This document shows positions 1-64,000 of a DNA stretch of 64,000 nt, in pieces. The number at the start of each line of letters is the position of its first letter. Positions within the stretch are counted from its first letter, which is position 1. Under the pieces are notes generated by a model. That model had not been told where the DNA came from. It ran no database searches and was given only the letters and a program-made list of their open reading frames with translations. The DNA is taken from NCBI GenBank assembly GCA_964017235.1, contig OZ024936.1, positions 13,244,496 through 13,308,495 of the forward strand. Direction: 5' to 3'. A program made the translations under genes and the position numbers. The stretch comes from Sabellastarte sp. h YS-2021 (Eukaryota > Annelida > Polychaeta > Sabellida > Sabellidae).

Positions 1-128
1 GGGACACCAATTTTTTTCCACCAATGGATAGAGTGGTCCAGTCTGAGTCTATACAATATAACAGGGTAGGGTCTAAAGACCTTAATTTCGTAGATATGAG
101 CAGACCCAGTATTTCCCATTGATTTTAA
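1..128 (+). repeat. Truncated satellite monomer at left edge
   Basis: This is the last 128 bp of a monomer cut by the window edge. Its class cannot be told because the diagnostic cassette lies outside. Near its end it has the variant GACCCAGT (about 105) instead of GAAACAGT. Elsewhere that variant sits just before B monomers carrying CCTTCCC (2099, 7760, 10301, 13228, 14997). The same pairing holds here, since the next B at 129 also has CCTTCCC. Confidence 0.95.
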
Positions 129-3100
129 ATGGGGATTTTGCCATGCATATACACTAGTAAAGGTGCCTTCCCATCGAGTACGCCAATTTTGGTCGTTCCG
201 AGGGACACCAATTTTTTTCCACCAATGGATAGAGTGGTCCAGTCTGAGTCTATACAATATAACAGGGTAGGGTCTAAAGACCTTAATTTCGTAGATATGA
301 GCAGAAACAGTATTTCCCATTGATTTTAAATGGGGATTTCGTCGTACATGTGTAGATGCCTTACCATCGAGTACGCCAATTTTGGTCGTTCCGAGGGACA
401 CCAATTTTTTTCCACCAATGGATAGAGTGGTCCAGTCTGAGTCTGTACAATATAACAGGGTAGGGTCTAAAGACCTTAATTTCGTAGATATGAGCAGAAA
501 CAGTATTTCCCATTGATTTTAAATGGGGATTTCGTCGTACATGTGTAGATGCCTTACCATCGAGTACGCCAATTTTGGTCGTTCCGAGGGACACCAATTT
601 TTTTCCACCAATGGATAGAGTGGTCCAGTCTGAGTCTATACAATATAACAGGGTAGGGTCTAAAGACCTTAATTTCGTAGATATGAGCAGAAACAGTATT
701 TCCCATTGATTTTAAATGGGGATTTTGCCATGCATATACACTAGTACAGGTGCCTTACCATCGAGTACGCCAATTTTGGTCGTTCCGAGGGACACCAATT
801 TTTTTCCACCAATGGATAGAGTGGTCCAGTCTGAGTCTATACAATATAACAGGGTAGGGTCTAAAGACCTTAATTTCGTAGATATGAGCAGAAACAGTAT
901 TTCCCATTGATTTTAAATGGGGATTTCGTCGTACATGTGTAGATGCCTTACCATCGAGTACGCCAATTTTGGTCGTTCCGAGGGACACCAATTTTTTTCC
1001 ACCAATGGATAGAGTGGTCCAGTCTGAGTCTGTACAATATAACAGGGTAGGGTCTAAAGACCTTAATTTCGTAGATATGAGCAGAAACAGTATTTCCCAT
1101 TGATTTTAAATGGGGATTTCGTCGTACATGTGTAGATGCCTTACCATCGAGTACGCCAATTTTGGTCATTCCGAGGGACACCAATTTTTTTCCACCAATG
1201 GATAGAGTGGTCCAGTCTGAGTCTATACAATATAACAGGGTAGGGTCTAAAGACCTTAATTTCGTAGATATGAGCAGAAACAGTATTTCCCATTGATTTT
1301 AAATGGGGATTTTGCCATGCATATACACTAGTACAGGTGCCTTACCATCGAGTACGCCAATTTTGGTCGTTCCGAGGGACACCAATTTTTTTCCACCAAT
1401 GGATAGAGTGGTCCAGTCTGAGTCTATACAATATAACAGGGTAGGGTCTAAAGACCTTAATTTCGTAGATATGAGCAGAAACAGTATTTCCCATTGATTT
1501 TAAATGGGGATTTCGTCGTACATGTGTAGATGCCTTACCATGGAGTACGCCAATTTTGGTCGTTCCGAGGGACACCAATTTTTTTCCACCAATGGATAGA
1601 GTGGTCCAGTCTGAGTCTATACAATATAACAGGGTAGGGTCTAAAGACCTTAATTTCGTAGATATGAGCAGAAACAGTATTTCCCATTGATTTTAAATGG
1701 GGATTTTGCCATGCATATACACTAGTACAGCTGCCTTACCATGGAGTACGCCAATTTTGGTCGTTCCGAGGGACACCAATTTTTTTCCACCAATGGATAG
1801 AGTGGTCCAGTCTGAGTCTATACAATATAACAGGGTAGGGTCTAAAGACCTTAATTTCGTAGATATGAGCAGAAACAGTATTTCCCATTGATTTTAAATG
1901 GGGATTTTGCCATGCATATACACTAGTACAGGTGCCTTACCATTGAGTACGCCAATTTTGGTCGTTCCGAGGGACACCAATTTTTTTCCACCAATGGATA
2001 GAGTGGTCCAGTCTGAGTCTATACAATATAACAGGGTAGGGTCTAAAGACCTTAATTTCGTAGATATGAGCCGACCCAGTATTTCCCATTGATTTTAAAT
2101 GGGGATTTTGCCATGCATATACACTAGTACAGGTGCCTTCCCATCGAGTACGCCAATTTTGGTCGTTCCGAGGGACACCAATTTTTTTCCACCAATGGAT
2201 AGAGTGGTCCAGTCTGAGTCTATACAATATAACAGGGTAGGGTCTAAAGACCTTAATTTCGTAGATATGAGCAGAAACAGTATTTCCCATTGATTTTAAA
2301 TGGGGATTTCGTCGTACATGTGTAGATGCCTTGCCATCGAGTACGCCAATTTTGGTCGTTCCGAGGGACACCAATTTTTTTCCACCAATGGATAGAGTGG
2401 TCCAGTCTGAGTCTGTACAATATAACAGGGTAGGGTCTAAAGACCTTAATTTTGTAGATATGAGCAGAAACAGTATTTCCCATTGATTTTAAATGGGGAT
2501 TTCGTCGTACATGTGTAGATGCCTTACCATCGAGTACGCCAATTTTGGTCGTTCCGAGGGACACCAATTTTTTTCCACCAATGGATAGAGTGGTCCAGTC
2601 TGAGTCTATACAATATAACAGGGTAGGGTCTAAAGACCTTAATTTCGTAGATATGAGCAGAAACAGTATTTCCCATTGATTTTAAATGGGGATTTTGCCA
2701 TGCATATACACTAGTACAGGTGCCTTATCATCGAGTACGCCAATTTTGGTCGTTCCGAGGGACACCAATTTTTTTCCACCAATGGATAGAGTGGTCCAGT
2801 CTGAGTCTATACAATATAACAGGGTAGGGTCTAAAGACCTTAATTTCGTAGATATGAGCAGAAACAGTATTTCCCATTGATTTTAAATGGGGATTTCGTC
2901 GTACATGTGTAGATGCCTTGCCATCGAGTACGCCAATTTTGGTCGTTCCGAGGGACACCAATTTTTTTCCACCAATGGATAGAGTGGTCCAGTCTGAGTC
3001 TGTACAATATAACAGGGTAGGGTCTAAAGACCTTAATTTCGTAGATATGAGCAGAAACAGTATTTCCCATTGATTTTAAATGGGGATTTCGTCGTACATG

Positions 3101-6006
3101 TGTAGATGCCTTACCATCGAGTACGCCAATTTTGGTCGTTCCGAGGGACACCAATTTTTTTCCACCAATGGATAGAGTGGTCCAGTCTGAGTCTATACAA
3201 TATAACAGGGTAGGGTCTAAAGACCTTAATTTCGTAGATATGAGCAGAAACAGTATTTCCCATTGATTTTAAATGGGGATTTTGCCATGCATATACACTA
3301 GTACAGGTGCCTTACCATCGAGTACGCCAATTTTGGTCGTTCCGAGGGACACCAATTTTTTTCCACCAATGGATAGAGTGGTCCAGTCTGAGTCTATACA
3401 ATATAACAGGGTAGGGTCTAAAGACCTTAATTTCGTAGATATGAGCAGAAACAGTATTTCCCATTGATTTTAAATGGGGATTTCGTCGTACATGTGTAGA
3501 TGCCTTACCATGGAGTACGCCAATTTTGGTCGTTCCGAGGGACACCAATTTTTTTCCACCAATGGATAGAGTGGTCCAGTCTGAGTCTATACAATATAAC
3601 AGGGTAGGGTCTAAAGACCTTAATTTCGTAGATATGAGCAGAAACAGTATTTCCCATTGATTTTAAATGGGGATTTCGTCGTACATGTGTAGATGCCTTG
3701 CCATCGAGTACGCCAATTTTGGTCGTTCCGAGGGACACCAATTTTTTTCCACCAATGGATAGAGTGGTCCAGTCTGAGTCTGTACAATATAACAGGGTAG
3801 GGTCTAAAGACCTTAATTTCGTAGATATGAGCAGAAACAGTATTTCCCATTGATTTTAAATGGGGATTTCGTCGTACATGTGTAGATGCCTTACCATCGA
3901 GTACGCCAATTTTGGTCGTTCCGAGGGACACCAATTTTTTTCCACCAATGGATAGAGTGGTCCAGTCTGAGTCTATACAATATAACAGGGTAGGGTCTAA
4001 AGACCTTAATTTCGTAGATATGAGCAGAAACAGTATTTCCCATTGATTTTAAATGGGGATTTTGCCATGCATATACACTAGTACAGGTGCCTTATCATCG
4101 AGTACGCCAATTTTGGTCGTTCCGAGGGACACCAATTTTTTTCCACCAATGGATAGAGTGGTCCAGTCTGAGTCTATACAATATAACAGGGTAGGGTCTA
4201 AAGACCTTAATTTCGTAGATATGAGCAGAAACAGTATTTCCCATTGATTTTAAATGGGGATTTCGTCGTACATGTGTAGATGCCTTGCCATCGAGTACGC
4301 CAATTTTGGTCGTTCCGAGGGACACCAATTTTTTTCCACCAATGGATAGAGTGGTCCAGTCTGAGTCTGTACAATATAACAGGGTAGGGTCTAAAGACCT
4401 TAATTTCGTAGATATGAGCAGAAACAGTATTTCCCATTGATTTTAAATGGGGATTTCGTCGTACATGTGTAGATGCCTTACCATCGAGTACGCCAATTTT
4501 GGTCGTTCCGAGGGACACCAATTTTTTTCCACCAATGGATAGAGTGGTCCAGTCTGAGTCTATACAATATAACAGGGTAGGGTCTAAAGACCTTAATTTC
4601 GTAGATATGAGCAGAAACAGTATTTCCCATTGATTTTAAATGGGGATTTTGCCATGCATATACACTAGTACAGGTGCCTTACCATCGAGTACGCCAATTT
4701 TGGTCGTTCCGAGGGACACCAATTTTTTTCCACCAATGGATAGAGTGGTCCAGTCTGAGTCTATACAATATAACAGGGTAGGGTCTAAAGACCTTAATTT
4801 CGTAGATATGAGCAGAAACAGTATTTCCCATTGATTTTAAATGGGGATTTCGTCGTACATGTGTAGATGCCTTACCATGGAGTACGCCAATTTTGGTCGT
4901 TCCGAGGGACACCAATTTTTTTCCACCAATGGATAGAGTGGTCCAGTCTGAGTCTATACAATATAACAGGGTAGGGTCTAAAGACCTTAATTTCGTAGAT
5001 ATGAGCAGAAACAGTATTTCCCATTGATTTTAAATGGGGATTTCGTCGTACATGTGTAGATGCCTTACCATCGAGTACGCCAATTTTGGTCGTTCCGAGG
5101 GACACCAATTTTTTTCCACCAATGGATAGAGTGGTCCAGACTGAGTCTGTACAATATAACAGGGTAGGGTCTAAAGACCTTAATTTCGTAGATATGAGCA
5201 GAAACAGTATTTCCCATTGATTTTAAATGGGGATTTCGTCGTACATGTGTAGATGCCTTACCATTGAGTACGCCAATTTTGGTCGTTCCGAGGGACACCA
5301 ATTTTTTTCCACCAATGGATAGAGTGGTCCAGTCTGAGTCTATACAATATAACAGGGTAGGGTCTAAAGACCTTAATTTCGTAGATATGAGCAGAAACAG
5401 TATTTCCCATTGATTTTAAATGGGGATTTTGCCATGCATATACACTAGTACAGGTGCCTTACCATTGAGTACGCCAATTTTGGTCGTTCCGAGGGACACC
5501 AATTTTTTTCCACCAGTGGATAGAGTGGTCCAGTCTGAGTCTATACAATATAACAGGGTAGGGTCTAAAGACCTTAATTTCGTAGATATGAGCAGAAACA
5601 GTATTTCCCATTGATTTTAAATGGGGATTTCGTCGTACATGTGTAGATGCCTTACCATCGAGTACGCCAATTTTGGTCGTTCCGAGGGACACCAATTTTT
5701 TTCCACCAATGGATAGAGTGGTCCAGTCTGAGTCTATACAATATAACAGGGTAGGGTCTAAAGACCTTAATTTCGTAGATATGAGCAGAAACAGTATTTC
5801 CCATTGATTTTAAATGGGGATTTCGTCATACATGTGTAGATGCCTTACCATGGAGTACGCCAATTTTGGTCGTTCCGAGGGACACCAATTTTTTTCCACC
5901 AATGGATAGAGTGGTCCAGTCTGAGTCTATACAATATAACAGGGTAGGGTCCAAAGACCTTAATTTTGTAGATATGAGCAGAAACAGTATTTCCCATTGA
6001 TTTTAA
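129..6006 (+). repeat. Left flank block, B and A monomers, ATGGGG type
   Basis: B starts are 129, 716, 1303, 1697, 1898, 2099, 2686, 3273, 4053, 4640 and 5420; the remaining units are A. Spacing is mostly BAA (587 bp), with BAAA (780 bp) at 3273 and 4640 and a BBB cluster at 1697-2299. All B copies are ATGGGG type. Diagnostic variants are GTCTGTAC in alternate A copies (about 443, 1030, 2415, 3000, 3780, 4370, 5147), CCATGG for CCATCG (about 1538, 1740, 3508, 4875, 5848) and CCAGACTGAG (about 5136). Most of 1303-6006 is present again at 14201-17344. Confidence 0.93.
2686..5419 (+). repeat. Tandem duplication of a 7-mer (2 x 1367 bp)
   Basis: The order B-A-A-B-A-A-A (2 x 201 plus 5 x 193 = 1367 bp) occurs at 2686-4052 and again at 4053-5419. 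Shared private states confirm it: CCTTATCATCG in the first B (about 2727 and 4094), CCATGG in the fourth unit's successor (about 3508 and 4875) and the same GTCTGTAC positions. The homologous block at 15584-16950 has this 7-mer only once. So the window holds both the one-copy and two-copy forms of the same region, which points to an unequal exchange in one of them. Confidence 0.92.
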
Positions 6007-6410
6007 ATAGGGATTTTGCCATGCATATACACTAGTACAGGTGCCTTACCATCGAGTACGCCAATTTTGGTCGTTCCGAGGGACACCAGTTTTTTTCCAC
6101 CAATGGATAGAGTGGTCCAGTCTGAGTCTATACAATATAACAGGGTAGGGTCTAAAGACCTTAATTTCGTAGATATGAGCAGAAACAGTATTTCCCATTG
6201 ATTTTAAATGGGGATTTCGTCGTACATGTGTAGATGCCTTACCCTCGAGTACGCCAATTTTGGTCGTTCCGAGGGACACCAATTTTTTTCCACCAATGGA
6301 TAGAGTGGTCCAGTCTGAGTCTATACAATATAACAGGGTAGGGTCTAAAGACCTTAATTTCGTAGATATGAGCAGAAACAGTATTTCCCATTGATTTTAA
6401 ATGGGGATTT

Positions 6411-6427
6411 CGTCGTACATGTGTAGA
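6411..6427 (+). other. Class A diagnostic cassette
   Basis: These 17 bases after ATGGGGATTT distinguish class A. The cassette contains two CpGs (TCGTCG) and the self-complementary ACATGT. Against the B cassette there are seven differences at offsets 11, 13, 15, 17, 21, 23 and 24, plus one at 27, and all eight are transitions. It occurs with few changes in all 239 A copies. Exceptions include GTCATA for GTCGTA at about 5826, 17164 and 61993, and TTTTGTC for TTTCGTC at about 57689, 59643 and 61991. A protein-binding role is possible by analogy with the A/B boxes of primate alpha satellite, but nothing in the sequence proves it. Confidence 0.85.
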
Positions 6428-6475
6428 TGCCTTACCATCGAGTACGCCAATTTTGGTCGTTCCGAGGGACACCAA

Positions 6476-6482
6476 TTTTTTT
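6476..6482 (+). other. T7 tract in each monomer
   Basis: CCAA is followed by seven T and CCACC in nearly every monomer (A offset 76-82). Such tracts bend DNA and influence nucleosome placement in general; here that is inference. Length or base variants are rare: T6 at 22116, 27591 and 34416, a T-to-A change at about 47452, and a T-to-C change at about 60493. TTCTACC instead of TTCCACC just after the tract is a diagnostic variant found only between about 36.9 and 55.1 kb. Confidence 0.8.
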
Positions 6483-6534
6483 CCACCAATGGATAGAGTG
6501 GTCCAGTCTGAGTCTATACAATATAACAGGGTAG

Positions 6535-6546
6535 GGTCTAAAGACC
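6535..6546 (+). other. Short dyad GGTCT-AA-AGACC, one per monomer
   Basis: The sequence GGTCTAAAGACC is a perfect 5 bp inverted repeat around a two-base centre, and flanking A/T and G.T positions extend the symmetry weakly. It sits at offset 135-146 of A and 143-154 of B, so it recurs about every 193-201 bp. Two variants break the pairing: GGTGTAAAG in a subset of B copies (for example 7124, 9464, 18462) and GGTCCAAAG (5949, 17288, 18856, 24331, 31156, 61137). With so short a centre it is better viewed as a possible protein site than as a stable hairpin. Confidence 0.7.
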
Positions 6547-8346
6547 TTAATTTCGTAGATATGAGCAGAAACAGTATTTCCCATTGATTTTAAATGGGGA
6601 TTTCGTCGTACATGTGTAGATGCCTTACCATCGAGTACGCCAATTTTGGTCGTTCCGAGGGACACCAATTTTTTTCCACCAATGGATAGAGTGGTCCAGT
6701 CTGAGTCTATACAATATAACAGGGTAGGGTCTAAAGACCTTAATTTCGTAGATATGAGCAGAAACAGTATTTCCCATTGATTTTAAATGGGGATTTCGTC
6801 GTACATGTGTAGATGCCTTACCATCGAGTACGCCAATTTTGGTCGTTCCGAGGGACACCAATTTTTTTCCACCAATGGATAGAGTGGTCCAGTCTGCGTC
6901 TATACAATATAACAGGGTAGGGTCTAAAGACCTTAATTTTGTAGATATGAGCAGAAACAGTATTTCCCATTGATTTTAAATAGGGATTTTGCCATGCATA
7001 TACACTAGTACAGGTGCCTTACCATCGAGTATGCCAATTTTGGTCGTTCCGAGGGACACCAATTTTTTTCCACCAATGCATAGAGTGGGCCAGTCTGAGT
7101 CTATACAATATAACAGGGTAGGGTGTAAAGACCTTAATTTCGTAGATTTGAGCAGAAACAGTATTTCCCATTGATTTTAAATGGGGATTTCGTCGTACAT
7201 GTGTAGATGCCTTACCATCGAGTACGCCAATTTTGGTCGTTCCGAGGGACACCAATTTTTTTCCACCAATGGATAGAGTGGTCCAGTCTGAGTCTATACA
7301 ATATAACAGGGTAGGGTCTAAAGACCTTAATTTCGTAGATATGAGCAGAAACAGTATTTCCCATTGATTTTAAATGGGGATTTCGTCGTACATGTGTAGA
7401 TGCCTTACCCTCGAGTACGCCAATTTTGGTCGTTCCGAGGGACACCAATTTTTTTCCACCAATGGATAGAGTGGTCCAGTCTGAGTCTATACAATATAAC
7501 AGGGTAGGGTCTAAAGACCTTAATTTCGTAGATATGAGCAGAAACAGTATTTCCCATTGATTTTAAATGGGGATTTCGTCGTACATGTGTAGATGCCTTA
7601 CCATCGAGTACGCCAATTTTGGTCGTTCTGAGGGACACCAATTTTTTTCCACCAATGGATAGAGTAGTCCAGTCTGAGTCTATACAATATAACAGGGTAG
7701 GGTCTAAAGACCTTAATTTCGTAGATATGAGCAGACCCAGTATTTCCCATTGATTTTAAATGGGGATTTTGCCATGCATATACACTAGTACAGGTGCCTT
7801 CCCATCGAGTACGCCAATTTTGGTCGTTCCGAGGGACACCAATTTTTTTCCACCAATGGATAGAGTGGTCCAGTCTGAGTCTATACAATATAACAGGGTA
7901 GGGTCTAAAGACCTTAATTTCGTAGATATGAGCAGAAACAGTATTTCCCATTGATTTTAAATGGGGATTTCGTCGTACATGTGTAGATGCCTTACCATCG
8001 AGTACGCCAATTTTGGTCGTTCCGAGGGACACCAATTTTTTTCCACCAATGGATAGAGTGGTCCAGTCTGAGTCTGTACAATATAACAGGGTAGGGTCTA
8101 AAGACCTTAATTTCGTAGATATGAGCAGAAACAGTATTTCCCATTGATTTTAAATGGGGATTTCGTCGTACATGTGTAGATGCCTTACCATCGAGTACGC
8201 CAATTTTGGTCGTTCCGAGGGACACCAATTTTTTTCCACCAATGGATAGAGTGGTCCAGTCTGAGTCTATACAATATAACAGGGTAGGGTCTAAAGACCT
8301 TAATTTCGTAGATATGAGCAGAAACAGTATTTCCCATTGATTTTAA

Positions 8347-8547
8347 ATGGGGATTTTGCCATGCATATACACTAGTACAGGTGCCTTACCATCGAGTACG
8401 CCAATTTTGGTCGTTCCGAGGGACACCAATTTTTTTCCACCAATGGATAGAGTGGTCCAGTCTGAGTCTATACAATATAACAGGGTAGGGTCTAAAGACC
8501 TTAATTTCGTAGATATGAGCAGAAACAGTATTTCCCATTGATTTTAA
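8347..8547 (+). repeat. Reference class B monomer, 201 bp
   Basis: This is the common form of class B. It equals class A except for the cassette at offsets 11-35, where it has seven transitions, then an inserted CTAGTACA (offsets 26-33), then one more transition. Subtypes by first bases: 35 copies begin ATGGGG; 32 begin ATAGGG after TTTAA; 19 begin ATAGGG after TTTCA; two begin CTAGGG after TTTAA (41535, 45610). Some ATAGGG copies also carry GGTGTAAAG in the dyad and GATTTG further on (for example 9320). A 64-codon ATG frame runs through ATGGGG copies and stops at CAT TGA. ATAGGG copies lose that ATG, so their shorter frame needs a TTG start. Confidence 0.97.
8357..8381 (+). other. Class B diagnostic cassette
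   Basis: These 25 bases replace the 17-base A cassette. They include ATGCATAT, ACTAGT and an 8 bp insertion, CTAGTACA. The insertion leaves TACA on both sides of CTAG. Both CpGs of the A cassette are lost here, one as TpG and one as CpA. Recurring variants are ACAGCTG for ACAGGTG (about 1730, 14628, 61227, 63373) and AGTAAAGG for AGTACAGG (about 154). The cassette is strongly maintained across the 88 B copies. Confidence 0.85.
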
Positions 8548-11500
8548 ATGGGGATTTCGTCGTACATGTGTAGATGCCTTACCCTCGAGTACGCCAATTT
8601 TGGTCGTTCCGAGGGACACCAATTTTTTTCCACCAATGGATAGAGTGGTCCAGTCTGAGTCTATACAATATAACAGGGTAGGGTCTAAAGACCTTAATTT
8701 CGTAGATATGAGCAGAAACAGTATTTCCCATTGATTTTAAATGGGGATTTCGTCGTACATGTGTAGATGCCTTACCATCGAGTACGCCAATTTTGGTCGT
8801 TCCGAGGGACACCAATTTTTTTCCACCAATGGATAGAGTGGTCCAGTCTGAGTCTATACAATATAACAGGGTAGGGTCTAAAGACCTTAATTTCGTAGAT
8901 ATGAGCAGAAACAGTATTTCCCATTGATTTTAAATGGGGATTTCGTCGTACATGTGTAGATGCCTTACCATCGAGTACGCCAATTTTGGTCGTTCCGAGG
9001 GACACCAATTTTTTTCCACCAATGGATAGAGTGGTCCAGTCTGAGTCTATACAATATAACAGGGTAGGGTCTAAAGACCTTAATTTCGTAGATATGAGCA
9101 GAAACAGTATTTCCCATTGATTTTAAATGGGGATTTCGTCGTACATGTGTAGATGCCTTACCATCGAGTACGCCAATTTTGGTCGTTCCGAGGGACACCA
9201 ATTTTTTTCCACCAATGGATAGAGTGGTCCAGTCTGCGTCTATACAATATAACAGGGTAGGGTCTAAAGACCTTAATTTTGTAGATATGAGCAGAAACAG
9301 TATTTCCCATTGATTTTAAATAGGGATTTTGCCATGCATATACACTAGTACAGGTGCCTTACCATCGAGTATGCCAATTTTGGTCGTTCCGAGGGACACC
9401 AATTTTTTTCCACCAATGGATAGAGTGGTCCAGTCTGAGTCTATACAATATAACAGGGTAGGGTGTAAAGACCTTAATTTCGTAGATTTGAGCAGAAACA
9501 GTATTTCCCATTGATTTTAAATGGGGATTTCGTCGTACATGTGTAGATGCCTTACCATCGAGTACGCCAATTTTGGTCGTTCCGAGGGACACCAATTTTT
9601 TTCCACCAATGGATAGAGTGGTCCAGTCTGAGTCTATACAATATAACAGGGTAGGGTCTAAAGACCTTAATTTCGTAGATATGAGCAGAAACAGTATTTC
9701 CCATTGATTTTCAATAGGGATTTTGCCATGCATATACACTAGTACAGGTGCCTTACCATCGAGTACGCCAATTTTGGTCGTTCCGAGGGACACCAATTTT
9801 TTTCCACCAATGGATAGAGTGGTCCAGTCTGAGTCTATACAATATAACAGGGTAGGGTCTAAAGACCTTAATTTCGTAGATATGAGCAGAAACAGTATTT
9901 CCCATTGATTTTAAATGGGGATTTCGTCGTACATGTGTAGATGCCTTACCCTCGAGTACGCCAATTTTGGTCGTTCCGAGGGACACCAATTTTTTTCCAC
10001 CAATGGATAGAGTGGTCCAGTCTGAGTCTATACAATATAACAGGGTAGGGTCTAAAGACCTTAATTTCGTAGATATGAGCAGAAACAGTATTTCCCATTG
10101 ATTTTAAATGGGGATTTCGTCGTACATGTGTAGATGCCTTACCATCGAGTACGCCAATTTTGGTCGTTCTGAGGGACACCAATTTTTTTCCACCAATGGA
10201 TAGAGTAGTCCAGTCTGAGTCTATACAATATAACAGGGTAGGGTCTAAAGACCTTAATTTCGTAGATATGAGCAGACCCAGTATTTCCCATTGATTTTAA
10301 ATGGGGATTTTGCCATGCATATACACTAGTACAGGTGCCTTCCCATCGAGTACGCCAATTTTGGTCGTTCCGAGGGACACCAATTTTTTTCCACCAATGG
10401 ATAGAGTGGTCCAGTCTGAGTCTATACAATATAACAGGGTAGGGTCTAAAGACCTTAATTTCGTAGATATGAGCAGAAACAGTATTTCCCATTGATTTTA
10501 AATGGGGATTTCGTCGTACATGTGTAGATGCCTTACCATCGAGTACGCCAATTTTGGTCGTTCCGAGGGACACCAATTTTTTTCCACCAATGGATAGAGT
10601 GGTCCAGTCTGAGTCTGTACAATATAACAGGGTAGGGTCTAAAGACCTTAATTTCGTAGATATGAGCAGAAACAGTATTTCCCATTGATTTTAAATGGGG
10701 ATTTCGTCGTACATGTGTAGATGCCTTACCATCGAGTACGCCAATTTTGGTCGTTCCGAGGGACACCAATTTTTTTCCACCAATGGATAGAGTGGTCCAG
10801 TCTGAGTCTATACAATATAACAGGGTAGGGTCTAAAGACCTTAATTTCGTAGATATGAGCAGAAACAGTATTTCCCATTGATTTTAAATGGGGATTTCGT
10901 CGTACATGTGTAGATGCCTTACCATCGAGTACGCCAATTTTGGTCGTTCCGAGGGACACCAATTTTTTTCCACCAATGGATAGAGTGGTCCAGTCTGAGT
11001 CTGTACAATATAACAGGGTAGGGTCTAAAGACCTTAATTTCGTAGATATGAGCAGAAACAGTATTTCCCATTGATTTTAAATGGGGATTTCGTCGTACAT
11101 GTGTAGATGCCTTACCATCGAGTACGCCAATTTTGGTCGTTCCGAGGGACACCAATTTTTTTCCACCAATGGATAGAGTGGTCCAGTCTGAGTCTATACA
11201 ATATAACAGGGTAGGGTCTAAAGACCTTAATTTCGTAGATATGAGCAGAAACAGTATTTCCCATTGATTTTAAATGGGGATTTTGCCATGCATATACACT
11301 AGTACAGGTGCCTTACCATCGAGTACGCCAATTTTGGTCGTTCCGAGGGACACCAATTTTTTTCCACCAATGGATAGAGTGGTCCAGTCTGAGTCTATAC
11401 AATATAACAGGGTAGGGTCTAAAGACCTTAATTTCGTAGATATGAGCAGAAACAGTATTTCCCATTGATTTTAAATGGGGATTTCGTCGTACATGTGTAG

Positions 11501-14200
11501 ATGCCTTACCCTCGAGTACGCCAATTTTGGTCGTTCCGAGGGACACCAATTTTTTTCCACCAATGGATAGAGTGGTCCAGTCTGAGTCTATACAATATAA
11601 CAGGGTAGGGTCTAAAGACCTTAATTTCGTAGATATGAGCAGAAACAGTATTTCCCATTGATTTTAAATGGGGATTTCGTCGTACATGTGTAGATGCCTT
11701 ACCATCGAGTACGCCAATTTTGGTCGTTCCGAGGGACACCAATTTTTTTCCACCAATGGATAGAGTGGTCCAGTCTGAGTCTATACAATATAACAGGGTA
11801 GGGTCTAAAGACCTTAATTTCGTAGATATGAGCAGAAACAGTATTTCCCATTGATTTTAAATGGGGATTTCGTCGTACATGTGTAGATGCCTTACCATCG
11901 AGTACGCCAATTTTGGTCGTTCCGAGGGACACCAATTTTTTTCCACCAATGGATAGAGTGGTCCAGTCTGAGTCTATACAATATAACAGGGTAGGGTCTA
12001 AAGACCTTAATTTCGTAGATATGAGCAGAAACAGTATTTCCCATTGATTTTAAATGGGGATTTCGTCGTACATGTGTAGATGCCTTACCATCGAGTACGC
12101 CAATTTTGGTCGTTCCGAGGGACACCAATTTTTTTCCACCAATGGATAGAGTGGTCCAGTCTGCGTCTATACAATATAACAGGGTAGGGTCTAAAGACCT
12201 TAATTTTGTAGATATGAGCAGAAACAGTATTTCCCATTGATTTTAAATAGGGATTTTGCCATGCATATACACTAGTACAGGTGCCTTACCATCGAGTATG
12301 CCAATTTCGGTCATTCCGAGGGACACCAATTTTTTTCCACCAATGGATAGAGTGGTCCAGTCTGAGTCTATACAATATAACAGGGTAGGGTGTAAAGACC
12401 TTAATTTCGTAGATTTGAGCAGAAACAGTATTTCCCATTGATTTTAAATGGGGATTTCGTCGTACATGTGTAGATGCCTTACCATCGAGTACGCCAATTT
12501 TGGTCGTTCCGAGGGACACCAATTTTTTTCCACCAATGGATAGAGTGGTCCAGTCTGAGTCTATACAATATAACAGGGTAGGGTCTAAAGACCTTAATTT
12601 CGTAGATATGAGCAGAAACAGTATTTCCCATTGATTTTCAATAGGGATTTTGCCATGCATATACACTAGTACAGGTGCCTTACCATCGAGTACGCCAATT
12701 TTGGTCGTTCCGAGGGACACCAATTTTTTTCCACCAATGGATAGAGTGGTCCAGTCTGAGTCTATACAATATAACAGGGTAGGGTCTAAAGACCTTAATT
12801 TCGTAGATATGAGCAGAAACAGTATTTCCCATTGATTTTAAATGGGGATTTCGTCGTACATGTGTAGATGCCTTACCCTCGAGTACGCCAATTTTGGTCG
12901 TTCCGAGGGACACCAATTTTTTTCCACCAATGGATAGAGTGGTCCAGTCTGAGTCTATACAATATAACAGGGTAGGGTCTAAAGACCTTAATTTCGTAGA
13001 TATGAGCAGAAACAGTATTTCCCATTGATTTTAAATGGGGATTTCGTCGTACATGTGTAGATGCCTTACCATCGAGTACGCCAATTTTGGTCGTTCTGAG
13101 GGACACCAATTTTTTTCCACCAATGGATAGAGTAGTCCAGTCTGAGTCTATACAATATAACAGGGTAGGGTCTAAAGACCTTAATTTCGTAGATATGAGC
13201 AGACCCAGTATTTCCCATTGATTTTAAATGGGGATTTTGCCATGCATATACACTAGTACAGGTGCCTTCCCATCGAGTACGCCAATTTTGGTCGTTCCGA
13301 GGGACACCAATTTTTTTCCACCAATGGATAGAGTGGTCCAGTCTGAGTCTATACAATATAACAGGGTAGGGTCTAAAGACCTTAATTTCGTAGATATGAG
13401 CAGAAACAGTATTTCCCATTGATTTTAAATGGGGATTTCGTCGTACATGTGTAGATGCCTTACCATCGAGTACGCCAATTTTGGTCGTTCCGAGGGACAC
13501 CAATTTTTTTCCACCAATGGATAGAGTGGTCCAGTCTGAGTCTGTACAATATAACAGGGTAGGGTCTAAAGACCTTAATTTCGTAGATATGAGCAGAAAC
13601 AGTATTTCCCATTGATTTTAAATGGGGATTTCGTCGTACATGTGTAGATGCCTTACCATCGAGTACGCCAATTTTGGTCGTTCCGAGGGACACCAATTTT
13701 TTTCCACCAATGGATAGAGTGGTCCAGTCTGAGTCTATACAATATAACAGGGTAGGGTCTAAAGACCTTAATTTCGTAGATATGAGCAGAAACAGTATTT
13801 CCCATTGATTTTAAATGGGGATTTCGTCGTACATGTGTAGATGCCTTACCATCGAGTACGCCAATTTTGGTCGTTCCGAGGGACACCAATTTTTTTCCAC
13901 CAATGGATAGAGTGGTCCAGTCTGAGTCTGTACAATATAACAGGGTAGGGTCTAAAGACCTTAATTTCGTAGATATGAGCAGAAACAGTATTTCCCATTG
14001 ATTTTAAATGGGGATTTCGTCGTACATGTGTAGATGCCTTATCATCGAGTACGCCAATTTTGGTCGTTCCGAGGGACACCAATTTTTTTCCACCAATGGA
14101 TAGAGTGGTCCAGTCTGAGTCTATACAATATAACAGGGTAGGGTCTAAAGACCTTAATTTCGTAGATATGAGCAGAAACAGTATTTCCCATTGATTTTAA

Positions 14201-17200
14201 ATGGGGATTTTGCCATGCATATACACTAGTACAGGTGCCTTACCATCGAGTACGCCAATTTTGGTCGTTCCGAGGGACACCAATTTTTTTCCACCAATGG
14301 ATAGAGTGGTCCAGTCTGAGTCTATACAATATAACAGGGTAGGGTCTAAAGACCTTAATTTCATAGATATGAGCAGAAACAGTATTTCCCATTGATTTTA
14401 AATGGGGATTTCGTCGTACATGTGTAGATGCCTTACCATGGAGTACGCCAATTTTGGTCGTTCCGAGGGACACCAATTTTTTTCCACCAATGGATAGAGT
14501 GGTCCAGTCTGAGTCTATACAATATAACAGGGTAGGGTCTAAAGACCTTAATTTCGTAGATATGAGCAGAAACAGTATTTCCCATTGATTTTAAATGGGG
14601 ATTTTGCCATGCATATACACTAGTACAGCTGCCTTACCATGGAGTACGCCAATTTTGGTCGTTCCGAGGGACACCAATTTTTTTCCACCAATGGATAGAG
14701 TGGTCCAGTCTGAGTCTATACAATATAACAGGGTAGGGTCTAAAGACCTTAATTTCGTAGATATGAGCAGAAACAGTATTTCCCATTGATTTTAAATGGG
14801 GATTTTGCCATGCATATACACTAGTACAGGTGCCTTACCATTGAGTACGCCAATTTTGGTCGTTCCGAGGGACACCAATTTTTTTCCACCAATGGATAGA
14901 GTGGTCCAGTCTGAGTCTATACAATATAACAGGGTAGGGTCTAAAGACCTTAATTTCGTAGATATGAGCCGACCCAGTATTTCCCATTGCTTTTAAATGG
15001 GGATTTTGCCATGCATATACACTAGTACAGGTGCCTTCCCATCGAGTACGCCAATTTTGGTCGTTCCGAGGGACACCAATTTTTTTCCACCAATGGATAG
15101 AGTGGTCCAGTCTGAGTCTATACAATATAACAGGGTAGGGTCTAAAGACCTTAATTTCGTAGATATGAGCAGAAACAGTATTTCCCATTGATTTTAAATG
15201 GGGATTTCGTCGTACATGTGTAGATGCCTTGCCATCGAGTACGCCAATTTTGGTCGTTCCGAGGGACACCAATTTTTTTCCACCAATGGATAGAGTGGTC
15301 CAGTCTGAGTCTGTACAATATAACAGGGTAGGGTCTAAAGACCTTAATTTCGTAGATATGAGCAGAAACAGTATTTCCCATTGATTTTAAATGGGGATTT
15401 CGTCGTACATGTGTAGATGCCTTACCATCGAGTACGCCAATTTTGGTCGTTCCGAGGGACACCAATTTTTTTCCACCAATGGATAGAGTGGTCCAGTCTG
15501 AGTCTATACAATATAACAGGGTAGGGTCTAAAGACCTTAATTTCGTAGATATGAGCAGAAACAGTATTTCCCATTGATTTTAAATGGGGATTTTGCCATG
15601 CATATACACTAGTACAGGTGCCTTATCATCGAGTACGCCAATTTTGGTCGTTCCGAGGGACACCAATTTTTTTCCACCAATGGATAGAGTGGTCCAGTCT
15701 GAGTCTATACAATATAACAGGGTAGGGTCTAAAGACCTTAATTTCGTAGATATGAGCAGAAACAGTATTTCCCATTGATTTTAAATGGGGATTTCGTCGT
15801 ACATGTGTAGATGCCTTGCCATCGAGTACGCCAATTTTGGTCGTTCCGAGGGACACCAATTTTTTTCCACCAATGGATAGAGTGGTCCAGTCTGAGTCTG
15901 TACAATATAACAGGGTAGGGTCTAAAGACCTTAATTTCGTAGATATGAGCAGAAACAGTATTTCCCATTGATTTTAAATGGGGATTTCGTCGTACATGTG
16001 TAGATGCCTTACCATCGAGTACGCCAATTTTGGTCGTTCCGAGGGACACCAATTTTTTTCCACCAATGGATAGAGTGGTCCAGTCTGAGTCTATACAATA
16101 TAACAGGGTAGGGTCTAAAGACCTTAATTTCGTAGATATGAGCAGAAACAGTATTTCCCATTGATTTTAAATGGGGATTTTGCCATGCATATACACTAGT
16201 ACAGGTGCCTTACCATCGAGTACGCCAATTTTGGTCGTTCCGAGGGACACCAATTTTTTTCCACCAATGGATAGAGTGGTCCAGTCTGAGTCTATACAAT
16301 ATAACAGGGTAGGGTCTAAAGACCTTAATTTCGTAGATATGAGCAGAAACAGTATTTCCCATTGATTTTAAATGGGGATTTCGTCGTACATGTGTAGATG
16401 CCTTACCATGGAGTACGCCAATTTTGGTCGTTCCGAGGGACACCAATTTTTTTCCACCAATGGATAAAGTGGTCCAGTCTGAGTCTATACAATATAACAG
16501 GGTAGGGTCTAAAGACCTTAATTTCGTAGATATGAGCAGAAACAGTATTTCCCATTGATTTTAAATGGGGATTTCGTCGTACATGTGTAGATGCCTTACC
16601 ATCGAGTACGCCAATTTTGGTCGTTCCGAGGGACACCAATTTTTTTCCACCAATGGATAGAGTGGTCCAGACTGAGTCTGTACAATATAACAGGGTAGGG
16701 TCTAAAGACCTTAATTTCGTAGATATGAGCAGAAACAGTATTTCCCATTGATTTTAAATGGGGATTTCGTCGTACATGTGTAGATGCCTTACCATTGAGT
16801 ACGCCAATTTTGGTCGTTCCGAGGGACACCAATTTTTTTCCACCAATGGATAGAGTGGTCCAGTCTGAGTCTATACAATATAACAGGGTAGGGTCTAAAG
16901 ACCTTAATTTCGTAGATATGAGCAGAAACAGTATTTCCCATTGATTTTAAATGGGGATTTTGCCATGCATATACACTAGTACAGGTGCCTTACCATTGAG
17001 TACGCCAATTTTGGTCGTTCCGAGGGACACCAATTTTTTTCCACCAGTGGATAGAGTGGTCCAGTCTGAGTCTATACAATATAACAGGGTAGGGTCTAAA
17101 GACCTTAATTTCGTAGATATGAGCAGAAACAGTATTTCCCATTGATTTTAAATGGGGATTTCGTCATACATGTGTAGATGCCTTACCATGGAGTACGCCA

Positions 17201-17344
17201 ATTTTGGTCGTTCCGAGGGACACCAATTTTTTTCCACCAATGGATAGAGTGGTCCAGTCTGAGTCTATACAATATAACAGGGTAGGGTCCAAAGACCTTA
17301 ATTTTGTAGATATGAGCAGAAACAGTATTTCCCATTGATTTTAA
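14201..17344 (+). repeat. Second version of the 1303-6006 block
   Basis: B starts are 14201, 14595, 14796, 14997, 15584, 16171 and 16951. Positions 14201 to about 16600 match 1303 to about 3700 at offset 12898, including the BBB cluster, ACAGCTG, CCATGG and GACCCAGT. From about 16600 the offset becomes 11531, which equals 12898 minus one 1367 bp 7-mer. It then becomes 11338, the loss of one further A. Private differences from the left copy include CATTGCTTTTAA near 14988, TTCATAGAT near 14361 and GGATAAAGTG near 16463. The two versions lie either side of the 15-mer array. Confidence 0.92.
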
Positions 17345-20300
17345 ATAGGGATTTTGCCATGCATATACACTAGTACAGGTGCCTTACCATCGAGTACGCC
17401 AATTTTGGTCGTTCCGAGGGACACCAATTTTTTTCCACCAATGGATAGAGTGGTCCAGTCTGAGTCTATACAATATAACAGGGTAGGGTCTAAAGACCTT
17501 AATTTCGTAGATATGAGCAGAAACAGTATTTCCCATTGATTTTAAATGGGGATTTCGTCGTACATGTGTAGATGCCTTACCCTCGAGTACGCCAATTTTG
17601 GTCGTTCCGAGGGACACCAATTTTTTTCCACCAATGGATAGAGTGGTCCAGTCTGAGTCTATACAATATAACAGGGTAGGGTCTAAAGACCTTAATTTCG
17701 TAGATATGAGCAGAAACAGTATTTCCCATTGATTTTAAATGGGGATTTCGTCGTACATGTGTAGATGCCTTACCATCGAGTACGCCAATTTTGGTCGTTC
17801 TGAGGGACACCAATTTTTTTCCACCAATGGATAGAGTGGTCCAGTCTGAGTCTATACAATATAACAGGGTAGGGTCTAAAGACCTTAATTTCGTAGATAT
17901 GAGCAGAAACAGTATTTCCCATTGATTTTAAATGGGGATTTCGTCGTACATGTGTAGATGCCTTACCATCGAGTACGCCAATTTTGGTCGTTCCGAGGGA
18001 CACCAATTTTTTTCCACCAATGGATAGAGTGGTCCAGTCTGAGTCTATACAATATAACAGGGTAGGGTCTAAAGACCTTAATTTCGTAGATATGAGCAGA
18101 AACAGTATTTCCCATTGATTTTAAATGGGGATTTCGTCGTACATGTGTAGATGCCTTACCATCGAGTACGCCAATTTTGGTCGTTCCGAGGGACACCAAT
18201 TTTTTTCCACCAATGGATAGAGTGGTCCAGTCTGCGTCTATACAATATAACAGGGTAGGGTCTAAAGACCTTAATTTTGTAGATATGAGCAGAAACAGTA
18301 TTTCCCATTGATTTTAAATAGGGATTTTGCCATGCATATACACTAGTACAGGTGCCTTACCATCGAGTATGCCAATTTTGGTCGTTCCGAGGGACACCAA
18401 TTTTTTTCCACCAATGGATAGAGTGGTCCAGTCTGAGTCTATACAATATAACAGGGTAGGGTGTAAAGACCTTAATTTCGTAGATTTGAGCAGAAACAGT
18501 ATTTCCCATTGATTTTAAATGGGGATTTCGTCGTACATGTGTAGATGCCTTACCATCGAGTACGCCAATTTTGGTCGTTCCGAGGGACACCAATTTTTTT
18601 CCACCAATGGATAGAGTGGTCCAGTCTGAGTCTATACAATATAACAGGGTAGGGTCTAAAGACCTTAATTTCGTAGATATGAGCAGAAACAGTATTTCCC
18701 ATTGATTTTCAATAGGGATTTTGCCATGCATATACACTAGTACAGGTGCCTTACCATGGAGTACGCCAATTTTGGTCGTTCCGAGGGACACCAATTTTTT
18801 TCCACCAATGGATAGAGTGGTCCAGTCTGAGTCTATACAATATAACAGGGTAGGGTCCAAAGACCTTAATTTTGTAGATATGAGCAGAAACAGTATTTCC
18901 CATTGATTTTAAATAGGGATTTTGCCATGCATATACACTAGTACAGGTGCCTTACCATCGAGTACGCCAATTTTGGTCGTTCCGAGGGACACCAATTTTT
19001 TTCCACCAATGGATAGAGTGGTCCAGTCTGAGTCTATACAATATAACAGGGTAGGGTCTAAAGACCTTAATTTCGTAGATATGAGCAGAAACAGTATTTC
19101 CCATTGATTTTAAATGGGGATTTCGTCGTACATGTGTAGATGCCTTACCCTCGAGTACGCCAATTTTGGTCGTTCCGAGGGACACCAATTTTTTTCCACC
19201 AATGGATAGAGTGGTCCAGTCTGAGTCTATACAATATAACAGGGTAGGGTCTAAAGACCTTAATTTCGTAGATATGAGCAGAAACAGTATTTCCCATTGA
19301 TTTTAAATGGGGATTTCGTCGTACATGTGTAGATGCCTTACCATCGAGTACGCCAATTTTGGTCGTTCTGAGGGACACCAATTTTTTTCCACCAATGGAT
19401 AGAGTGGTCCAGTCTGAGTCTATACAATATAACAGGGTAGGGTCTAAAGACCTTAATTTCGTAGATATGAGCAGAAACAGTATTTCCCATTGATTTTAAA
19501 TGGGGATTTCGTCGTACATGTGTAGATGCCTTACCATCGAGTACGCCAATTTTGGTCGTTCCGAGGGACACCAATTTTTTTCCACCAATGGATAGAGTGG
19601 TCCAGTCTGAGTCTATACAATATAACAGGGTAGGGTCTAAAGACCTTAATTTCGTAGATATGAGCAGAAACAGTATTTCCCATTGATTTTAAATGGGGAT
19701 TTCGTCGTACATGTGTAGATGCCTTACCATCGAGTACGCCAATTTTGGTCGTTCCGAGGGACACCAATTTTTTTCCACCAATGGATAGAGTGGTCCAGTC
19801 TGCGTCTATACAATATAACAGGGTAGGGTCTAAAGACCTTAATTTTGTAGATATGAGCAGAAACAGTATTTCCCATTGATTTTAAATAGGGATTTTGCCA
19901 TGCATATACACTAGTACAGGTGCCTTACCATCGAGTATGCCAATTTTGGTCGTTCCGAGGGACACCAATTTTTTTCCACCAATGGATAGAGTGGTCCAGT
20001 CTGAGTCTATACAATATAACAGGGTAGGGTGTAAAGACCTTAATTTCGTAGATTTGAGCAGAAACAGTATTTCCCATTGATTTTAAATGGGGATTTCGTC
20101 GTACATGTGTAGATGCCTTACCATCGAGTACGCCAATTTTGGTCGTTCCGAGGGACACCAATTTTTTTCCACCAATGGATAGAGTGGTCCAGTCTGAGTC
20201 TATACAATATAACAGGGTAGGGTCTAAAGACCTTAATTTCGTAGATATGAGCAGAAACAGTATTTCCCATTGATTTTCAATAGGGATTTTGCCATGCATA

Positions 20301-20480
20301 TACACTAGTACAGGTGCCTTACCATCGAGTACGCCAATTTTGGTCGTTCCGAGGGACACCAATTTTTTTCCACCAATGGATAGAGTGGTCCAGTCTGAGT
20401 CTATACAATATAACAGGGTAGGGTCTAAAGACCTTAATTTCGTAGATATGAGCAGAAACAGTATTTCCCATTGATTTTAA
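17345..20480 (+). repeat. 8-mer repeat, 1568 bp offset (two copies)
   Basis: The order B AAAA B A B (3 x 201 + 5 x 193 = 1568 bp) is at 17345-18912 and 18913-20480. B starts are 17345, 18318, 18712 and 18913, 19886, 20280. Two B monomers abut at 18712/18913. The copies differ at the last B: 18712 has CCATGGAG and GGTCCAAAG, while 20280 has CCATCGAG and GGTCTAAAG. The 18712 unit therefore looks like a hybrid of a TTTCA-ATAGGG start with the 17152-17344 type of body. From 18913 the array also matches itself at 1367 bp (B A B AAAA). Confidence 0.88.
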
Positions 20481-23400
20481 ATGGGGATTTCGTCGTACAT
20501 GTGTAGATGCCTTACCCTCGAGTACGCCAATTTTGGTCGTTCCGAGGGACACCAATTTTTTTCCACCAATGGATAGAGTGGTCCAGTCTGAGTCTATACA
20601 ATATAACAGGGTAGGGTCTAAAGACCTTAATTTCGTAGATATGAGCAGAAACAGTATTTCCCATTGATTTTAAATGGGGATTTCGTCGTACATGTGTAGA
20701 TGCCTTACCATCGAGTACGCCAATTTTGGTCGTTCTGAGGGACACCAATTTTTTTCCACCAATGGATAGAGTGGTCCAGTCTGAGTCTATACAATATAAC
20801 AGGGTAGGGTCTAAAGACCTTAATTTCGTAGATATGAGCAGAAACAGTATTTCCCATTGATTTTAAATGGGGATTTCGTCGTACATGTGTAGATGCCTTA
20901 CCATCGAGTACGCCAATTTTGGTCGTTCCGAGGGACACCAATTTTTTTCCACCAATGGATAGAGTGGTCCAGTCTGAGTCTATACAATATAACAGGGTAG
21001 GGTCTAAAGACCTTAATTTCGTAGATATGAGCAGAAACAGTATTTCCCATTGATTTTAAATGGGGATTTCGTCGTACATGTGTAGATGCCTTACCATCGA
21101 GTACGCCTATTTTGGTCGTTCCGAGGGACACCAATTTTTTTCCACCAATGGATAGAGTGGTCCAGTCTGCGTCTATACAATATAACAGGGTAGGGTCTAA
21201 AGACCTTAATTTTGTAGATATGAGCAGAAACAGTATTTCCCATTGATTTTAAATAGGGATTTTGCCATGCATATACACTAGTACAGGTGCCTTACCATCG
21301 AGTACGCCAATTTTGGTCGTTCCGAGGGACACCAATTTTTTTCCACCAATGGATAGAGTGGTCCAGTCTGAGTCTATACAATATAACAGGGTAGGGTGTA
21401 AAGACCTTAATTTCGTAGATTTGAGCAGAAACAGTATTTCCCATTGATTTTAAATGGGGATTTCGTCGTACATGTGTAGATGCCTTACCCTCGAGTACGC
21501 CAATTTTGGTCGTTCCGAGGGACACCAATTTTTTTCCACCAATGGATAGAGTGGTCCAGTCTGAGTCTATACAATATAACAGGGTAGGGTCTAAAGACCT
21601 TAATTTCGTAGATATGAGCAGAAACAGTATTTCCCATTGATTTTAAATGGGGATTTCGTCGTACATGTGTAGATGCCTTACCATCGAGTACGCCAATTTT
21701 GTTCGTTCCGAGGGACACCAATTTTTTTCCACCAATGGATAGAGTGGTCCAGTCTGAGTCTATACAATATAACAGGGTAGGGTCTAAAGACCTTAATTTC
21801 GTAGATATGAGCAGAAACAGTATTTCCCATTGATTTTAAATGGGGATTTCGTCGTACATGTGTAGATGCCTTACCATCGAGTACGCCAATTTTGGTCGTT
21901 CCGAGGGACACCAATTTTTTTCCACCAATGGATAGAGTGGTCCAGTCTGCGTCTATACAATATAACAGGGTAGGGTCTAAAGACCTTAATTTTGTAGATA
22001 TGAGCAGAAACAGTATTTCCCATTGATTTTAAATAGGGATTTTGCCATGCATATACACTAGTACAGGTGCCTTACCATCGAGTATGCCAATTTTGGTCGT
22101 TCCGAGGGACACCAATTTTTTCCACCAATGGATAGAGTGGTCCAGTCTGAGTCTATACAATATAACAGGGTAGGGTGTAAAGACCTTAATTTCGTAGATT
22201 TGAGCAGAAACAGTATTTCCCATTGATTTTAAATGGGGATTTCGTCGTACATGTGTAGATGCCTTACCATCGAGTACGCCAATTTTGGTCGTTCCGAGGG
22301 ACACCAATTTTTTTCCACCAATGGATAGAGTGGTCCAGTCTGAGTCTATACAATATAACAGGGTAGGGTCTAAAGACCTTAATTTCGTAGATATGAGCAG
22401 AAACAGTATTTCCCATTGATTTTCAATAGGGATTTTGCCATGCATATACACTAGTACAGGTGCCTTACCATCGAGTACGCCAATTTTGGTCGTTCCGAGG
22501 GACACCAATTTTTTTCCACCAATGGATAGAGTGGTCCAGTCTGAGTCTATACAATATAACAGGGTAGGGTCTAAAGACCTTAATTTCGTAGATATGAGCA
22601 GAAACAGTATTTCCCATTGATTTTAAATGGGGATTTCGTCGTACATGTGTAGATGCCTTACCCTCGAGTACGCCAATTTTGGTCGTTCCGAGGGACACCA
22701 ATTTTTTTCCACCAATGGATAGAGTGGTCCAGTCTGAGTCTATACAATATAACAGGGTAGGGTCTAAAGACCTTAATTTCGTAGATATGAGCAGAAACAG
22801 TATTTCCCATTGATTTTAAATGGGGATTTCGTCGTACATGTGTAGATGCCTTACCATCGAGTACGCCAATTTTGGTCGTTCCGAGGGACACCAATTTTTT
22901 TCCACCAATGGATAGAGTGGTCCAGTCTGAGTCTATACAATATAACAGGGTAGGGTCTAAAGACCTTAATTTCGTAGATATGAGCAGAAACAGTATTTCC
23001 CATTGATTTTAAATGGGGATTTCGTCGTACATGTGTAGATGCCTTACCATCGAGTACGCCAATTTTGGTCGTTCCGAGGGACACCAATTTTTTTCCACCA
23101 ATGGATAGAGTGGTCCAGTCTGAGTCTATACAATATAACAGGGTAGGGTCTAAAGACCTTAATTTCGTAGATATGAGCAGAAACAGTATTTCCCATTGAT
23201 TTTAAATGGGGATTTCGTCGTACATGTGTAGATGCCTTACCATCAAGTACGCCAATTTTGGTCGTTCCGAGGGACACCAATTTTTTTCCACCAATGGATA
23301 GAGTGGTCCAGTCTGCGTCTATACAATATAACAGGGTAGGGTCTAAAGACCTTAATTTTGTAGATATGAGCAGAAACAGTATTTCCCATTGATTTTAAAT

Positions 23401-23792
23401 AGGGATTTTGCCATGCATATACACTAGTACAGGTGCCTTACCATCGAGTACGCCAATTTTGGTCGTTCCGAGGGACACCAATTTTTTTCCACCAATGGAT
23501 AGAGTGGTCCAGTCTGAGTCTATACAATATAACAGGGTAGGGTCTAAAGACCTTAATTTCGTAGATATGAGCAGAAACAGTATTTCCCATTGATTTTAAA
23601 TGGGGATTTCGTCGTACATGTGTAGATGCCTTACCATCGAGTACGCCAATTTTGGTCGTTCCGAGGGACACCAATTTTTTTCCACCAATGGATAGAGTGG
23701 TCCAGTCTGCGTCTATACAATATAACAGGGTAGGGTCTAAAGACCTTAATTTTGTAGATATGAGCAGAAACAGTATTTCCCATTGATTTTAA
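18318..23792 (+). repeat. 28-mer higher-order repeat, copy 1 (5475 bp)
   Basis: This block holds 9 B and 19 A. B starts are 18318, 18712, 18913, 19886, 20280, 21253, 22033, 22426 and 23399; the one at 22033 is 200 bp. It recurs at 23793 (offset 5475) and again at 30618. Private landmarks shared by the copies are CGCCTATTTT (21107, 26582, 33407), TTTGTTCGTTCC (about 21700, 27175, 34000), the T6 tract (22116, 27591, 34416) and CATCAAGTAC (about 23243, 28718, 35543). I saw no difference between copies 1 and 2 until about 23.6 kb against 29.1 kb, so the duplication looks recent. Confidence 0.93.
22033..22232 (+). repeat. 200 bp B monomer with T6 tract
   Basis: A single T is missing from the T7 tract (22116-22121). 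This shortens the B monomer to 200 bp and breaks the frame that is open in other B copies. The same deletion occurs only at 27508-27707 and 34333-34532, exactly 5475 and 12300 bp away. It is a good marker for one ancestral event carried along by block duplication. The related B at 41141 has the normal T7. Confidence 0.93.
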
Positions 23793-63935: not shown

Positions 63936-64000
63936 ATGGGGATTTCGTCGTACATGTGTAGATGCCTTACCATCGAGTACGCCAATTTTGGTCGTTCCGA
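63936..64000 (+). repeat. Truncated class A monomer at right edge
   Basis: The first 65 bp of a class A monomer, with the A cassette and CCATCGAG, run to the window edge. The array therefore continues beyond 64 kb, and neither border of the satellite is in view. Confidence 0.95.

What the first reader, a model, noticed from the sequence alone, without database searches (positions are those of the whole stretch)
8347..8547. A and B monomers differ in one short cassette, by transitions only plus an 8 bp insertion
Aligning 6401-6593 with 8347-8547, the consistent class differences lie in offsets 11-27 (A) or 11-35 (B). I count eight substitutions, all transitions, evenly split in direction, and one inserted CTAGTACA. 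The other 166 or so bases are shared. Primate alpha satellite also has A and B monomer types that differ in a short box bound by pJalpha or CENP-B. A comparable binding-site dimorphism here is inference.
Basis: partly seen in the sequence, partly recalled or inferred. Interest (0 to 1): 0.72.

Follow-up and report, generated by a model that had tools for sequence, protein, structure and literature searches.

The report
Two-form box in a satellite repeat
A megabase-long tandem DNA repeat in an unidentified animal comes in two versions that consistently differ only in one box of 17 or 25 letters, much like the A and B versions of human centromere repeats, but whether any protein reads the box is unknown.

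Summary
All 64 kb is one 193/201 bp satellite. Box Fst is 0.97, flank Fst 0.04; 202 A and 133 B monomers share a letter-identical 176-column flank. No box is a clear A/B hybrid. Some flank variants are shared locally between classes, so backbones are copied across classes while boxes travel whole. A 201-bp-spaced form with the B base at column 28 also occurs on C19. By subtraction, about 14,800 relatives have neither box within three mismatches. The geometry resembles the primate AB-box, and B monomers are neighbours less often than chance. CENP-B and pJalpha motifs are not above shuffled sequence, and the box is not more conserved than flanks. Best reading: a heterology island copied as a unit in a homogenising array; a protein-read AB-box is the main rival.

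The parts
1..64000 (+). Head-to-tail satellite array, 193 bp (A) and 201 bp (B) monomers interspersed; part of an array of about 2.6 Mb on C14
6401..6593 (+). Example A monomer (193 bp)
6411..6427 (+). A box, 17 bp (columns 26-35 and 44-50)
8347..8547 (+). Example B monomer (201 bp)
8357..8381 (+). B box, 25 bp (columns 26-50)
8367..8374 (+).
8382..8547 (+). Shared backbone after the box (166 bp), no fixed class difference

Best explanation
This is a megabase satellite array with local higher-order repeats whose monomers carry one of two versions of a short box. Shown: the two boxes keep the same purine/pyrimidine pattern at all 17 aligned sites, so they look homologous and diverged; the rest of the monomer is shared; some flank variants are common to A and B in the same stretch; no box is a clear hybrid. 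Inferred mechanism: array turnover (unequal exchange, gene conversion or break-induced template switching) joins monomers in the long identical backbone and hardly ever inside the short non-identical box. The backbone is thus homogenised across classes while boxes are passed on as whole units, A and B behaving like two alleles inside one array. The B form arose once, by slow divergence or by import of a short patch from a diverged array, and was spread by higher-order-repeat amplification. No bound protein is needed for this, and none is shown.
For: Box Fst 0.974 against flank Fst 0.040; 14 flank haplotypes (of 170 A and 121 B) are shared and cover 324 of 745 A and 200 of 445 B monomers; 202 A and 133 B have the letter-identical consensus flank. 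Among 1,190 monomers none joins an A left half to a B right half or the reverse; the departures are mostly one-site changes, 42 of them at the A class's two CpG sites. Flank alleles 62G, 139G, 162C and 177T (the last a CpG transition) rise together in A and B of the same locus (r 0.79-0.92; 0-4 of 500 permutations); mean r over the 18 tested is 0.25, above the null maximum 0.19. Exact higher-order copies at lags 35 and 36 in L031 and L033, 14 monomer pairs each. Box diversity within class is ordinary: A exceeds 80 of 160 flank windows, B 124 of 152.
Against: B spacing is over-dispersed, and both forms are present in all 21 sampled stretches (B fraction 0.21-0.63), which pure drift with local amplification need not give. 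Seven changes in 17 bp against none fixed in 176 implies long persistence of both forms unless B was imported, and no donor array was read. Of the 18 shared flank alleles 12 show no local correlation and 2 only a weak one, so many may be recurrent mutations. Swaps at an end site (13 A monomers with the B base at column 26 only, 1 B monomer with the A base at column 50) cannot be told from exchange breakpoints inside the box. Flank Fst, though small, exceeds shuffled labels (maximum 0.0038).
Confidence: 0.5

Rival explanations
1. The box is a functional AB-box: A and B are alternative recognition sites (one bound, one not, or two proteins), and selection or centromere drive keeps both forms while the backbone is homogenised, as proposed for CENP-B/pJalpha in primates. 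A pogo-derived protein of this animal could be the reader.
For: Fixed divergence confined to a 17/25 bp box; both forms in every sampled stretch; BB neighbours fewer than chance, as for CENP-B boxes; a mix of 193 and 201 bp spacings with the B base at column 28 also on C19; 61 CENP-B_N matches in the genome (150 of 235 candidates scored), one open frame having four CENP-B_N and four HTH_Tnp_Tc5 matches.
Against: No significant CENP-B or pJalpha motif; box not conserved above flanks in either class; spacing could be inherited through higher-order repeats; runs of up to 6 B occur; no binding or chromatin data; centromere identity of the array untested.
Confidence: 0.36
2. A special case of the best explanation: B was made by a short patch copied from a diverged relative of the same satellite on another chromosome, followed by amplification; there was no long co-existence in this array.
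For: By subtraction about 14,800 of 33,012 backbone-bearing monomers genome-wide have neither box within 3 mismatches, so possible donors with other boxes exist; relatives lie on C18, C19, C21 and small scaffolds. One compact patch fits a conversion tract.
Confidence: 0.3
3. Assembly or alignment artefact.
For: 200 N are in the stretch with the left edge and in the one with the first strand switch of the C14 array; gap placement is ambiguous by several bases.
Against: The same two boxes recur in 1,190 monomers at 21 stretches and in 6,402 + 3,361 exact copies.
Confidence: 0.01

Closest known systems
Primate alpha satellite A/B monomers with the AB-box (CENP-B box or pJalpha box)
   Same: Class difference concentrated in a 17-bp-scale box at a fixed place in the monomer; both classes interspersed in higher-order repeats; B monomers seldom adjacent (PMC9549924 and PMC8997354, passages).
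   Different: A 193/201 bp monomer in another animal; box forms differ by transitions plus 8 bp; backbones can be letter-identical between classes, whereas pairs of alpha monomers within a higher-order repeat may be only 50-70% identical; no CENP-B or pJalpha motif above chance; B avoidance is much weaker here.
PcP190 satellite of frogs
   Same: A divergent block flanked by conserved sequence, with recombination or selection offered as explanations (PMC4201667, passages).
   Different: The block spans positions 94-169 and the comparison is between species and genera; here two forms co-exist monomer by monomer in one array.
Meloidogyne satellites with a CENP-B box-like motif
   Same: Invertebrate satellites with higher-order arrays and a short motif tied to array rearrangement (PMC3694981, abstract and outline).
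   Different: There the motif is conserved among dissimilar monomers; here the box is the part that varies.

Membership tests
Alpha-satellite-type AB-box dimorphism (as a form) | Monomer classes differ mainly in one narrow box | tested here: met
   Fst 0.974 in the box, 0.040 in the flank
Alpha-satellite-type AB-box dimorphism (as a form) | Both classes interspersed in higher-order repeats | tested here: met
Alpha-satellite-type AB-box dimorphism (as a form) | B monomers rarely adjacent | tested here: inconclusive
   Fewer than chance but not rare: BB 122 against 169 expected, 81 against 98 among distinct dimers; runs of up to 6 B occur; amplified copies make p-values optimistic
CENP-B box | Core NTTCGNNNNANNCGGGN (recalled consensus) | tested here: not met
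   A box 7 of 9, B box 3 of 9 in the same register; 114 of 300 shuffles reach 7
pJalpha box | TTCCTTTTYCACCRTAG in the variable box (recalled consensus) | tested here: not met
   best 12 of 17, outside the box, in both classes; 41 and 53 of 300 shuffles reach it
Centromeric satellite | Occupied by CENP-A/CENH3 | not testable with these tools
   no chromatin data; only a megabase array at one place on C14
Protein-bound box | Box more conserved within class than flanks | tested here: not met
   A box average, B box above 124 of 152 flank windows in diversity
Known structured RNA or RNA-derived repeat | Rfam match | tested here: not met
   0 matches at E<=1 in window 8001-8800

The most novel reading that the evidence does not exclude
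An animal outside the primates independently evolved an AB-box satellite: two alternative recognition boxes kept in balance and spaced apart in one array while the backbone is homogenised, possibly read by a domesticated pogo-like protein with four CENP-B-type DNA-binding modules.
Probability: 0.3. Interest if true: 0.82.

Novelty: new variant of a known kind. Interest (0 to 1): 0.56.

Why it matters
Why CENP-B boxes avoid neighbouring monomers in human arrays is described as unclear (PMC8997354, passages). A satellite with similar geometry, but with backbones that can be letter-identical between classes, separates the effect of the box from the effect of the rest of the monomer and gives a clean natural test of binding, spacing and drive. 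Even if neutral, it shows array turnover homogenising around a short heterology rather than through it.

Tried and rejected
CENP-B box and pJalpha box: searched on both strands of both consensus monomers with 300 shuffles each; not significant. Hairpin in the box: single-strand DNA folding of both boxes is no better than shuffles (z 1.08 and 0.75). RNA-gene origin: no Rfam match. Strict purine/pyrimidine constraint: between classes all 17 sites keep the pattern, but B boxes carry within-class transversions (18 variant types, 119 copies, which still included the two false L042 rows; 66 copies at column 50 and 26 at column 29), so a strict constraint is rejected. R at column 28 with exact anchors: 0 places genome-wide. 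The idea that the other arrays are simply CpG-decayed A: forms with T at columns 26 and 28 number 445 and every listed place is on C14, the list being capped. DNA search by a whole monomer returned nothing, its words being too common. Species identity: COX1 reads with the invertebrate mitochondrial code and a CCCTAA-like repeat is at the start of C320; two literature searches (0 papers, listing) gave no species; a spiralian animal is my guess only. Literature: the listings (20 of 251 shown; 10 of 14; 12 of 27; 10 of 34; 3 of 3; 3 of 3; 6 of 6) showed, by title and start of abstract, no paper on this satellite; I saw passages of PMC9549924, PMC8997354 and PMC4201667 and the abstract and outline of PMC3694981. 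Romanova et al. 1996 was seen only as a reference-list entry.

Rows dropped: three of 1,193 aligned rows, all from L042 (two not satellite, one truncated edge monomer); diversity, Fst, haplotype and transition figures were recomputed without them. The BB shuffle and the local correlations used loci with 30 or more monomers, which leaves L042 out; the dimer count and the B fractions used all rows. Searches used 1,193 rows.

Full report
What the window is. The 64,000 bases are a single head-to-tail satellite lying at C14:13,244,496-13,308,495 of a 1.786 Gb genome in 647 contigs. Of 20 stretches of 10 kb taken across C14, 19 hold the satellite wholly or in part, from about 11.86 Mb to 14.50 Mb; the one at 11.80 Mb has none. 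It reads on the minus strand up to about 12.40 Mb, on the plus strand after, and on the minus strand again in the 14.50 Mb stretch. 200 N lie in the stretch with the left edge and in the one with the first strand switch, so block order there is uncertain. In the window 328 monomer starts were found, 240 A and 88 B, with spacings 193 (234), 201 (85), 192 (5) and 200 (3).

The class difference. Aligning 327 window monomers, the only near-fixed differences are columns 26, 28, 30, 32, 46, 47 and 50 and an 8-bp block, columns 36-43; column 18 differs in frequency. The same fixed columns appear in 1,190 monomers from the window and 19 C14 stretches (745 A, 445 B; 3 of 1,193 rows dropped): box Fst 0.974, flank Fst 0.040 (shuffled-label maximum 0.0038), flank diversity 2.54 (A), 2.98 (B) and 2.88 between classes per monomer. 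The two example monomers have 0 differences outside the box. Transitions make up 46-52% of flank variants, so all-transition has P 0.004-0.011 for 7 of 7. Two of the seven are at CpG sites of A.

Discreteness and exchange. Of 1,190 monomers, 689 are pure A at the seven sites, 375 pure B, and 67 are B with a third base at column 50. Of the other 59, 48 are A with the B base at one of columns 26 (13), 28 (6) or 30 (29), 1 is A with the B base at columns 26 and 30, 2 are A-like with nearly the whole box deleted, and 8 have one other changed site (rows shown). None joins an A half to a B half; single changes at an end site cannot be told from a breakpoint. By contrast the flanks are shared: 14 identical flank haplotypes (of 170 in A and 121 in B) cover 324 A and 200 B monomers; 202 A and 133 B have the consensus flank letter for letter. 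Eighteen derived flank alleles occur at least three times in both classes. Four (62G, 139G, 162C, 177T) rise together in A and B of the same locus (0-4 of 500 permutations), two more weakly (5T 26 of 500; 178A 38 of 500), and twelve do not; 177T and 178A are CpG transitions. So backbone copying between classes happens locally for some variants, while others may be recurrent mutations.

Arrangement. Higher-order repeats are local: exact identity at lag 35 (L031) and 36 (L033) over 14 monomer pairs each; lag 35 is also the best in the window (22% of pairs identical). B neighbours are too few: 122 BB pairs against 169.2 +/- 7.8 when shuffled within 18 loci (0 of 2,000). Among 615 distinct dimers 81 are BB against 98.4 expected (Fisher p 0.004). 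Amplified copies are not independent, so these p-values are optimistic.

Outside C14. Exact boxes number 6,402 (A) and 3,361 (B) genome-wide. With up to 3 mismatches they are 12,066 and 6,154, and a 47-base piece of the backbone, up to 3 mismatches, gives 33,012. Listings are capped, so the split by contig is my arithmetic: C14 should hold about 13,400 monomers (2.64 Mb at 51 per 10 kb), about 41% B in the sampled stretches without the window (357 of 863; 27% in the window). On that estimate B within 3 mismatches is mostly on C14, about 4,000 A-like monomers are elsewhere, and about 14,800 monomers have neither box. A search for irregular spacings placed relatives on C18 (8.0-10.05 Mb), C19 (5.25-5.77 Mb), C21 (0.15-0.51 Mb), C37, C24, C491, C537 and a trace on C11. 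A pattern with the B base at column 28, either transition state at columns 26, 30 and 32, and a base other than A at column 36 gave 682 places; of the 100 listed, 82 are on C19 from 5.15 Mb, 12 on C14, 4 on C18 and 1 each on C7 and C11. Of the 81 spacings on C19, 70 are sums of 193 and 201 with at least one 201 (2.2% of integers would be), 16 are exactly 201, 9 are one base more than such a sum and 2 are long.

Function tests. CENP-B and pJalpha motifs are at chance level. Folding of either box is at chance level. Within a class, box diversity is average (A) or above most flank windows (B), which speaks against a strongly constrained binding site. The genome has 61 CENP-B_N matches among 150 scored candidates. 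One on C2 is an open frame with four CENP-B_N and four HTH_Tnp_Tc5 matches and a DDE_1 domain, similar to the solved CENP-B DNA-binding domain 1hlv (E 7.5e-8). Compared with a relative on C3 (L022), two acidic residues of the DDE part are replaced (LLIDNCPAH to LLIKNCPAH; PMDQG to PMNQG), as in a domesticated transposase; that these are catalytic residues is recalled knowledge. Any link to the satellite is speculation.

Verdict. The finding is real and sharper than stated: an AB-box-like dimorphism in which the box holds the only fixed class differences. It works like a heterology island carried whole through a homogenising array; whether it also works like the primate AB-box (alternative protein sites) is open. 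It is not filed as a CENP-B or pJalpha box.

Noticed in passing
L020 (G000:C2:164646158-164649307): Open frame (1346 aa) with four CENP-B_N and four HTH_Tnp_Tc5 matches and a DDE_1 domain in which two acidic residues present in the relative L022 are replaced; candidate domesticated multi-module DNA-binding protein.
   Followed up: partly
L024:1-7365 (G000:C14:11855001-11862365): A 681-bp tandem array, 10.8 copies at 100% matches, beside the left edge of the 193/201 bp array; 200 bases lie between them and the stretch holds 200 N.
   Followed up: no
L047, L048, L049, L050, L059 (C21, C22, C25, C30, C550): A second satellite of 375/376 bp, with a weaker 187-188 bp period in L047, L048 and L059; C21 starts with it.
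   Followed up: no
L054 (C110): A 353-bp tandem repeat at 100% matches; by eye the starts of C1 and C20 carry similar sequence.
   Followed up: no
L025 (C14:12000001-12010000): Two A-like monomers of 176 bp lack nearly the whole box by a 17-bp deletion.
   Followed up: no
8368-8379: The extra B block repeats TACA at a distance of 8 bp (TACACTAGTACA), which could be a slippage or transposon-footprint trace; seen by eye.
   Followed up: no
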